From Candidatus Woesearchaeota archaeon (GTDB lineage Archaea > Nanobdellota > Nanobdellia > SCGC-AAA011-G17 > GW2011-AR18): 52,396 nt of DNA. The notes under the pieces are model-generated. The model did no database searches. It saw only the letters and a list, made by a program, of their open reading frames with translations, and was not told the DNA's origin. The DNA lies in contig JAGVZW010000001.1 in NCBI GenBank assembly GCA_018302235.1, forward strand, positions 1-52,396, given 5' to 3'. Position numbers and translations under genes: made by a program. The number at the start of each line of letters is the position of its first letter. The stretch's first letter is position 1. Of this stretch, positions 45,424 through 49,289 are shown piece after piece.

Positions 45424-45696
45424 ATGAAAATAAAACCTATGGGAGAAAGAATACTTATTAAACAGTACAAAAAAGAAGAAAAAACCGCGGGTGGTATATA
45501 TATCCCTGAATCAACAAAAGAAGAGAGAAAAGAAGGTGAAGTTGTTGCAGTTGGATATTATAAAGATGGAACAGAATTACCTCTAAAACCGGGGGATAAA
45601 ATACTTTATGGAGGATATAGCTCTGAAGATATAGAAATTGATGGGGAAAAACACATCTTTATTGATTTTAAAGATATATTAGCTAAAATTGAGTGA
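45424..45696 (+). CDS. groES: GroES, group I co-chaperonin
   Basis: The lid of the bacterial-type chaperonin. The 90-residue protein has MKIKPMGERILIKQYKKEEKTAGGIYIPE, including the mobile loop that contacts GroEL, and the C-terminal KPGDKILYGGYSSEDIEIDGE. Length and residues are normal. It is followed by groEL after 11 nt. Archaea as a rule use the group II thermosome; group I chaperonins are known in Methanosarcina and in some DPANN lineages by lateral transfer. The base composition is like that of the neighbours, so the transfer would not be recent. Confidence 0.96.
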   Translation: MKIKPMGERILIKQYKKEEKTAGGIYIPESTKEERKEGEVVAVGYYKDGTELPLKPGDKILYGGYSSEDIEIDGEKHIFIDFKDILAKIE

Positions 45697-45701
45697 GGTA
45701 G

Positions 45702-47321
<1,620 letters not shown>

Positions 47322-48304: not shown

Positions 48305-48315
48305 GTTTATAAAAT
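48305..48315 (+). promoter_or_regulatory. TATA box for tRNA-Ile
   Basis: GTTTATAAAAT centred about 27 nt before the mature tRNA 5' end at 48337, giving this tRNA its own promoter. Confidence 0.55.
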
Positions 48316-48368
48316 CTCCATTTTTCCATTAATTATGGGCCCATAGCTTAGCCTGGCTGGAGCACCCG

Positions 48369-48385
48369 TACATTAAAATGGTGAA
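48369..48385 (+). other. Candidate intron 1 of tRNA-Ile (position 30/31)
   Basis: Seventeen nucleotides between CCCG and the A31 that pairs with T39. A short helix CATT/GGTG can form within it. This position is non-canonical, as found in archaea with relaxed splicing endonucleases. Confidence 0.5.
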
Positions 48386-48393
48386 ACTGATAA

Positions 48394-48406
48394 GTCAGCT
48401 AAGAAA
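48394..48406 (+). other. Candidate intron 2 of tRNA-Ile (position 38/39 or 37/38)
   Basis: Thirteen nucleotides after the anticodon loop. Because A residues flank both ends, the cut may be shifted by 1-2 nt to the canonical 37/38 position with the same mature product. Only about two base pairs support the central helix. Confidence 0.48.
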
Positions 48407-48422
48407 TCGGGAGGTCCTGCGT

Positions 48423-49289
48423 TCAAATCGCAGTGGGCCCACTTTTTTTCAGACTACCTAACTTCTTTTGTTCCAAATTATCTAAAAAACGTTCAGTATT
48501 TTTAATCTGCTTATCAGTCCTTTTAGAATATACACGTATTCTCCCTCTAAAAATCTCTAAATCCTTTTTAGCTATCTCTAATTGTCTTTTTAATTCATCT
48601 TCATTTAAAGGCTCATCAATTATCCTCTTAAATTTAATTGCAGACAAATCAAGCCTATCATCTTTAATATTTTTTTTATGTTTATCTAAAATTCTCCTGA
48701 ACTCCATCCCAAATCTTTTTCTTTTTCTGATTTCATCACAAACTAAACTAATATCTTTCTTCTCCAAATCATTAATTTTTTTCTCTAATAAATTCATCCT
48801 CCCATGTATATATCTCTTATAATTATGCAATATATCTTCTTTTTCCCTCAATAAAGTATCTCTTTGTCTAATCAACACCCCTATTCTCTCATCCCTCATT
48901 GATTTTAATAAATTAAGCTTATCATCCAATCCATCTTCAATTAAATCAAGCCTTTCTTTCAGTCCATTATTATCTTTTAATTCATTTCTCCCAAAAAATC
49001 CCTTAAATAGCAACTTAATTCTCCTCAAACCAGTTAACTTTTTTATTCTGTTATCCCCCATATCATTAGTTTTATCAAAAGCCTCACGATTATGATAATC
49101 TAAAAAAGATTTTTTCTTCAAAAATAATAACTCTAAATCCCCTCTTTCTTTATCATGTGCTATCTTAATCCGTTTCAAAGATATTTTATACCTTTCATTC
49201 TCTCTAGCCTCCATTGTATCTATTTCATTTAACTTTTTATTAAAAACCTCCCCTATCCTAGCAATCATACTCTCTTTCTTATATTTCAT
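48423..49289 (-). CDS. Coiled-coil hypothetical protein
   Basis: A 288-residue, very charged protein, rich in Lys, Arg, Glu and Asp with long helices (KRQLEIAKKDLEIFRGRIRVYSKRT; MKYKKESMIARIGEVFNKKL). No signal peptide or membrane helix, so it is probably cytoplasmic. Its ATG overlaps the upstream membrane-protein gene by 4 nt, suggesting it works with that protein, perhaps beneath the membrane. The last six codons and the TGA stop lie antisense within the 3' end of tRNA-Ile. The family is not recognised. Confidence 0.7.
   Translation of the reverse strand: MKYKKESMIARIGEVFNKKLNEIDTMEARENERYKISLKRIKIAHDKERGDLELLFLKKKSFLDYHNREAFDKTNDMGDNRIKKLTGLRRIKLLFKGFFGRNELKDNNGLKERLDLIEDGLDDKLNLLKSMRDERIGVLIRQRDTLLREKEDILHNYKRYIHGRMNLLEKKINDLEKKDISLVCDEIRKRKRFGMEFRRILDKHKKNIKDDRLDLSAIKFKRIIDEPLNEDELKRQLEIAKKDLEIFRGRIRVYSKRTDKQIKNTERFLDNLEQKKLGSLKKSGPTAI

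What the first reader, a model, noticed from the sequence alone, without database searches (positions are those of the whole stretch)
48337..48441. tRNA-Ile(GAU) interrupted twice in the anticodon arm by 17- and 13-nt introns
Acceptor, D and T arms are perfect, but the anticodon arm closes only if two separate insertions are removed. After removal the arm reads CCCGA-CTGATAA-TCGGG and the molecule has exactly 75 nt. A single intron cannot give T33. Multiple and non-canonical tRNA introns are established in some Thermoproteales and reported in a few other archaea. Two introns this small, only 8 nt apart, are unusual, and the inner helices available for splicing are weak, so the splicing endonuclease may be a relaxed type.
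Basis: partly seen in the sequence, partly recalled or inferred. Interest (0 to 1): 0.68.

Follow-up and report, generated by a model that had tools for sequence, protein, structure and literature searches.

The report
Twice-interrupted isoleucine tRNA gene
In this tiny uncultured archaeon the gene for an isoleucine transfer RNA is broken by two very short introns that must be cut out before the molecule can work; the gene is a new example of a known kind, but the organism's whole splicing system looks unusual, because its only detectable cutting enzyme lacks the loop thought to allow such cuts and its joining enzyme's own message seems to need the same splicing.

Summary
Window 48337-48441 is the only detectable tRNA-Ile(GAU) gene of a 0.8-Mb Woesearchaeota-like DPANN archaeon. 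Two insertions must be removed: 48369-48385 (17 nt, position 30/31) and 48393-48405 (13 nt, canonical 37/38). The result is a standard 75-nt tRNA whose anticodon arm occurs intact in intronless relatives. Of 103 genomes of the order, 18 have the gene uninterrupted, 8 have only the 37/38 intron, and 13 have the 30/31 intron, always with a 37/38 intron. Within one genus one genome has both introns and two lack both at the same locus. The central helix of the 30/31 splice motif pairs 52/52 in 13 genomes and covaries, so these are archaeal bulge-helix-bulge (BHB) introns; this copy is a relaxed form. Such introns, and tRNAs with several, are already known. More surprising is the setting: many disrupted tRNAs, but only one detectable alpha-type splicing endonuclease, without the loop linked to relaxed cutting. 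The rtcB ligase gene itself carries BHB-like introns in at least 16 genomes, this one included. All this is sequence evidence; no RNA data were available, and a very divergent second endonuclease subunit is not excluded.

The parts
48306..48315 (+). archaeal TATA-box-like sequence TTTATAAAAT about 22-31 nt upstream of the tRNA
   Evidence: direct reading; not tested for function
48337..48441 (+). tRNA-Ile(GAU) gene, 105 nt with two introns
   Evidence: model R2, built without this sequence, 77.7 bits, E 1.5e-20; best R1 hit of the genome
48337..48368 (+). exon 1, tRNA nt 1-30
   Evidence: homologous to intronless relatives
48363..48366 (+). CACC, 5' strand of the central helix of the intron-1 BHB motif (tRNA nt 25-28)
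   Evidence: pairs with 48380-48383; 52/52 pairs over 13 genomes, covarying
48369..48385 (+). intron 1, 17 nt, position 30/31 (TACATTAAAATGGTGAA)
   Evidence: absent in 18 relatives, present in 13 genomes including this one
48380..48383 (+). GGTG, 3' strand of the intron-1 central helix; bulges CG^T and AA^A
48386..48392 (+). exon 2, tRNA nt 31-37 (ACTGATA, anticodon GAT at 48389-48391)
48387..48390 (+). CTGA, 5' strand of the central helix of the intron-2 motif (tRNA nt 32-35)
   Evidence: pairs 3 of 4 with 48400-48403, G34 opposite A
48393..48405 (+). intron 2, 13 nt, canonical position 37/38 (AGTCAGCTAAGAA; boundaries can slide by one A)
48400..48403 (+). TAAG, 3' strand of the intron-2 central helix; bulges TA^A and AA^A
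   Evidence: several relatives have TTAG or TCAG here
48406..48441 (+). exon 3, tRNA nt 38-73, discriminator A
48443..48449 (+). run of seven T directly downstream, a likely archaeal terminator
   Evidence: direct reading; not tested

Best explanation
This is a functional single-copy tRNA-Ile(GAU) gene. Its transcript carries two BHB-type introns, at 30/31 and 37/38. The tRNA splicing endonuclease cuts each at its two bulges and RtcB joins the exons to give a standard 75-nt tRNA-Ile. The motif for intron 1 uses tRNA nt 25-28, while the exon helix of intron 2 is the anticodon stem (nt 27-30 with 40-43). They share nt 27-28, so the two introns should be removed one after the other, with refolding in between. 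Shown by sequence: gene identity, the two insertion sites, presence and absence in relatives, covarying central helix. Inferred: transcription, cutting, order of removal, and that the one detectable alpha-type endonuclease does it.
For: Mature form recognised as Ile(gat) only after both excisions. Eighteen genomes of the order hold the uninterrupted gene, eight have only the 37/38 intron, 13 have the 30/31 intron, all 13 with a 37/38 intron too. In one genus G013 has both introns while G031 and G053 lack both at a syntenic locus. Intron-1 central helix 52/52 pairs over 13 genomes, best of all offsets tried (next best 45), with compensated changes CACC/GGTG, CACT/AGTG, CATT/AATG, CATC/GATG; permutation P 0.02. 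Intron-1 inner helix sum 58 pairs against a shuffle maximum of 26. No second Ile(GAU) copy. Endonuclease and RtcB ligase genes are present. Other tRNAs of this genome have introns at 29/30, 30/31, 59/60 and other sites whose removal gives standard tRNAs.
Against: No RNA data. The minimum-free-energy fold of the precursor does not show the intron-1 motif. In this copy both inner helices are missing and the intron-2 central helix has a G.A mismatch, so cutting needs a tolerant enzyme; the only detectable endonuclease is of a type described as narrow (PMC6379350).
Confidence: 0.9

Rival explanations
1. A decaying copy: the two segments are disabling insertions and another gene supplies tRNA-Ile(GAU).
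For: Both motifs are weaker here than in most relatives; the assembly is in 37 contigs.
Against: Genome rated 100% complete, no other Ile(GAU) found with a sensitive model; acceptor, D and T arms fully intact; same insertion site in 12 other genomes.
Confidence: 0.03
2. The arm is segmented differently, so the product is another tRNA or has other intron borders.
For: 23 double excisions satisfy five stem pairs and T33; the second border can slide by one A.
Against: Only the GAT solution matches the intact genes of relatives in arm and body and places a four-pair central helix with 2+1-nt bulges at intron 1.
Confidence: 0.02
3. The segments are real introns but are removed by EndA together with an unknown partner subunit, or by another nuclease.
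For: Relaxed motif with an alpha-type enzyme lacking the loop; a crenarchaeal-type short beta subunit would be nearly invisible to the profiles used (2zyz_A only E 0.44).
Against: Bulge and helix geometry is that of EndA substrates; a Nanoarchaeum-type beta would have been seen (3.8e-17), and no genome among the 57 with an alpha gene has a second match over the cut-off.
Confidence: 0.2
4. Assembly or sequencing artefact.
For: Fragmented assembly of an uncultured organism.
Against: The same architecture in 13 genomes with covarying bases.
Confidence: 0.01

Closest known systems
Multiple-intron, non-canonical-intron tRNAs of Thermoproteales (Crenarchaeota)
   Same: Several small BHB introns per tRNA, including sites such as 29/30, 30/31, 37/38, 59/60 and 3/4; strict and relaxed motifs side by side (PMC4090602, PMC4033280).
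   Different: Different phylum; endonuclease there is (alpha-beta)2 with the Crenarchaea-specific loop, here one detectable alpha gene without it.
Split tRNA-Lys(CUU) of Nanoarchaeum equitans and Staphylothermus, joined at 30/31
   Same: Same junction, 30/31, with a BHB motif (PMC3218864).
   Different: There two genes are trans-spliced; here a cis intron with a second intron at 37/38. N. equitans has a beta subunit, not found here.
Archaeal cbf5 pre-mRNA BHB intron
   Same: A tRNA-type intron in a protein-coding gene (PMC2738675), like the rtcB introns found here.
   Different: Different gene; rtcB encodes the ligase of the splicing reaction itself; introns at two main sites near conserved catalytic motifs in many Woesearchaeota-like genomes.

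Membership tests
Archaeal BHB tRNA intron | Insertion whose removal restores a standard tRNA | tested here: met
Archaeal BHB tRNA intron | Four-pair central helix between two three-nt bulges with cuts inside the bulges | tested here: met
   Intron 1: 4/4 here, 52/52 over 13 genomes; intron 2: only 3/4 here
Archaeal BHB tRNA intron | Inner helix h' (needed for the strict hBHBh' form, not for the relaxed forms) | tested here: not met
   Absent in both introns of this copy, present on intron 1 in 10 of 13 genomes; so relaxed (bulge-helix-loop) form
Archaeal BHB tRNA intron | Cut by EndA and joined by RtcB | not testable with these tools
   Both genes present; no biochemical data
alpha4 homotetrameric EndA (M. 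jannaschii type) | Single alpha gene of about 180 aa, catalytic Tyr-His-Lys, acidic L10 loop, no specific loop | tested here: met
   174 aa; Y110, H120, K151 invariant; D159-E161-D163 region; same spacing as 1a79 where A. pernix has about ten extra residues
alpha4 homotetrameric EndA (M. jannaschii type) | Homotetramer and narrow specificity | not testable with these tools
   assembly and activity unknown
(alpha-beta)2 EndA with Crenarchaea-specific loop | Loop insertion in alpha | tested here: not met
(alpha-beta)2 EndA with Crenarchaea-specific loop | Second, beta-subunit gene | tested here: inconclusive
   None found; Nanoarchaeum type would be seen, short crenarchaeal type might not

The most novel reading that the evidence does not exclude
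In this order of DPANN archaea a single alpha-type endonuclease without any known specificity loop removes relaxed, multiple introns from tRNAs and also from the mRNA of rtcB, the ligase that must rejoin them. Splicing capacity would then feed back on itself, and the rule that relaxed splicing needs a beta or epsilon architecture, usually with a CSL or ASL loop, would have an exception.
Probability: 0.5. Interest if true: 0.85.

Novelty: new member of a known kind. Interest (0 to 1): 0.58.

Why it matters
The tRNA gene alone extends a known kind of disrupted tRNA to an uncultured DPANN order and explains why standard tools miss it. Its context makes a debated question testable: whether relaxed intron recognition needs special endonuclease loops or a beta subunit. 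The order shows recent gain or loss of the same introns within a genus. The rtcB introns, if real, would mean that production of the splicing ligase depends on splicing, a feedback not described in the papers I could search.

Tried and rejected
Rfam and ARAGORN do not detect the gene. The energy fold of the precursor does not show the intron-1 motif; kept as evidence against. G097 intron 2 as first cut gave no pairing; recut with C38 it gives three pairs (by hand; recut used). PF02778 and PF01974 searches for a second endonuclease subunit found none, with the sensitivity limit. Rfam search of loci with the long 37/38 introns of relatives gave no known guide RNA there. RNAalifold of those introns gave two hairpins but little covariation. 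The survey by Kaneta et al. 2018 on endonuclease types is not held, so prior coverage of Woesearchaeota there could not be checked; the library searches found none.

Full report
WHAT IS THERE. The stretch 48337-48441 reads GGGCCCATAGCTTAGCCTGGCTGGAGCACCCG | TACATTAAAATGGTGAA | ACTGATA | AGTCAGCTAAGAA | ATCGGGAGGTCCTGCGTTCAAATCGCAGTGGGCCCA. The exons join to a 75-nt tRNA-Ile(GAU). A TATA-like box lies 22-31 nt upstream and seven T follow. ARAGORN and Rfam at its cut-off miss it. A covariance model built from eight spliced relatives, without this sequence, finds it at 77.7 bits, E 1.5e-20. In the whole genome (816 kb, 37 contigs, rated 100% complete) it is the best match by far and the only Ile(GAU) gene. 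The closest named relatives of its endonuclease are mostly labelled Candidatus Woesearchaeota.

IS THE SEGMENTATION RIGHT? ARAGORN calls Ile(gat) only if both segments are removed. What decides is comparison. Eighteen of 103 genomes of the order have the gene uninterrupted with the arm NNCGACTGATAATCGNN; two others, G091 and G061, carry the exact arm CCCGACTGATAATCGGG. Eight have only a 37/38 intron. Thirteen have an intron at 30/31, and all thirteen also have one at 37/38. In genus g12, G013 has both introns while G031 and G053 have none, and flanking DNA shows that the loci are the same, so the introns were gained or lost recently. The patterns classify 39 of the 103 genomes; the rest have other forms or other bases at the fixed positions, for example G003 and G009 with three introns at other sites.

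SPLICE MOTIFS. For intron 1 the bases at tRNA positions 25-28 pair with the four intron bases that end two before the 3' cut. This holds for 52 of 52 pairs in 13 genomes, with compensated changes (CACC/GGTG, CACT/AGTG, CATT/AATG, CATC/GATG). Other offsets give at most 45, and re-pairing between genomes reaches 52 with P 0.02; the modest P reflects how similar the genomes are in these bases. Bulges are CG^N and mostly AA^A. An inner helix follows in ten of 13, summed 58 pairs against a shuffle maximum of 26. The window's copy lacks it, so its intron 1 is a relaxed bulge-helix-loop form. Intron 2 pairs 32-35 (CTGA) with TAAG, three of four, with G34 opposite A; several relatives have TTAG or TCAG. 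The two motifs share nt 27-28 (as part of the intron-1 central helix and of the anticodon stem that flanks intron 2), so I infer that removal is sequential. The unconstrained energy fold does not show the intron-1 motif.

MACHINERY. The genome has one detectable endonuclease gene, 174 aa, in a head-to-head pair with an RNase Z-like ORF (RNase Z judged by eye). Its catalytic Tyr, His and Lys are conserved; its nearest solved relatives include the N. equitans alpha and M. jannaschii alpha4 chains; it lacks the roughly ten-residue insertion that forms the Crenarchaea-specific loop in A. pernix. Exactly one such gene above cut-off was found in 57 of 61 related genomes, including all eleven twin-intron genomes in that set. 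The profile would detect a Nanoarchaeum-type beta subunit (3.8e-17) but hardly a short crenarchaeal one (0.44). Published work calls alpha4 narrow and links relaxed cutting to (alpha-beta)2 or epsilon2 enzymes, with CSL or ASL loops (PMC6379350, PMC12397907, PMC4090602). So either this alpha enzyme is broader than expected or an unseen partner exists.

THE GENE IS NOT ALONE. By reading the tRNA loci of this genome I count 19 interrupted genes among about 31 detected, 12 of them at non-canonical sites. Nine of these (Ile-GAU, Ile-UAU, Ser-GGA, Ser-UGA, Gly-UCC, Ala-UGC, Lys-UUU, Asp-GUC, Phe-GAA) give the right tRNA in ARAGORN after excision; Arg-UCU, Gln-UUG and Leu-UAG were judged by eye only. 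Ser-GGA has a 30/31 intron with a perfect motif.

THE LIGASE GENE. Looking for RtcB I found its gene interrupted by a 31-nt segment with a BHB fold. Removing it restores PDAHVGYGLPMG. Among all excisions that restore the RtcB motif at site A, the best-scoring one has at least three of four central pairs and a consensus product in ten of eleven genomes. Over the eleven the helix pairs 40/44 against a mean of 19 when partners are swapped, 0 of 20,000 permutations reaching it, and inner helices sum to 72 against a shuffle maximum of 34. The site A junctions vary by about two codons, so these may be two adjacent insertion points. Ten genomes have a second site between GFD/GYD and INC, all with four of four pairs. 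Together that is 16 genomes. More than half of the genomes have a single uninterrupted rtcB match. The excision was chosen partly on helix score, so the pair counts lean upward; the permutation keeps the chosen helices and only swaps partners. In G000 the rtcB contig ends inside the gene, so its 3' part is unseen. I know of, and the library shows, only the cbf5 pre-mRNA intron as a studied archaeal BHB intron in a protein gene (PMC2738675).

ASSESSMENT. The tRNA is a new member of a known kind (30/31 introns and multi-intron tRNAs are established, PMC4090602, PMC3218864). What would surprise a specialist is the combination: a lineage full of relaxed introns with an apparently alpha-only, loop-less endonuclease, and introns in the ligase mRNA. 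Those two points are inference from sequence and need RNA data and an enzyme assay.

Noticed in passing
G000:C18:19-970 (-), loci L230/L231; relatives L262-L281: rtcB (tRNA ligase) gene interrupted by BHB-like introns of about 27-33 nt (one of 12 nt) at two main sites, in at least 16 genomes of the order including this one.
   Followed up: partly
L279 (G022) and other genomes with long in-frame rtcB insertions: Insertions of about 1.4 kb in frame near the same conserved rtcB motifs, probably inteins.
   Followed up: no
G000 loci L003-L029: About 19 of 31 detected tRNA genes of this genome are interrupted, 12 at non-canonical sites (3/4-like, about 25/26, 29/30, 30/31, 59/60); several tRNAs expected in a complete genome were not found.
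   Followed up: partly
L125 (G088), L127 (G036), L132 (G037), L133 (G021), L043 (G009), L050 (G003): The 37/38 intron of tRNA-Ile(GAU) is long (about 60-80 nt) in several families and shares two hairpins (TCTCTCTTCGGAGGTGAGA and AGAGC-TAT-GCTCT); no Rfam match; it may have a function.
   Followed up: partly
L036 (G020), L041 (G047), L037 (G039), L127 (G036), L043 (G009), L050 (G003): tRNA-Ile(GAU) with three introns, extra ones in the variable region, D arm or near 26/27.
   Followed up: partly
G000:C21:5724-5832 (L018): tRNA-Ile with anticodon UAU instead of the usual archaeal modified CAU form, with introns at 37/38 and in the T loop.
   Followed up: partly
window 48423-49289 (-): A 288-aa ORF on the other strand runs 19 nt into the 3' end of the tRNA gene.
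   Followed up: no
G000:C30:5024-5086 (L030): tRNA-like sequence with acceptor and T arm but apparently no D arm, near a contig end; perhaps a further disrupted or split tRNA.
   Followed up: no
window 45424-47321: GroES-like and GroEL-like genes (bacterial-type chaperonin) side by side in an archaeal genome, judged by eye.
   Followed up: no
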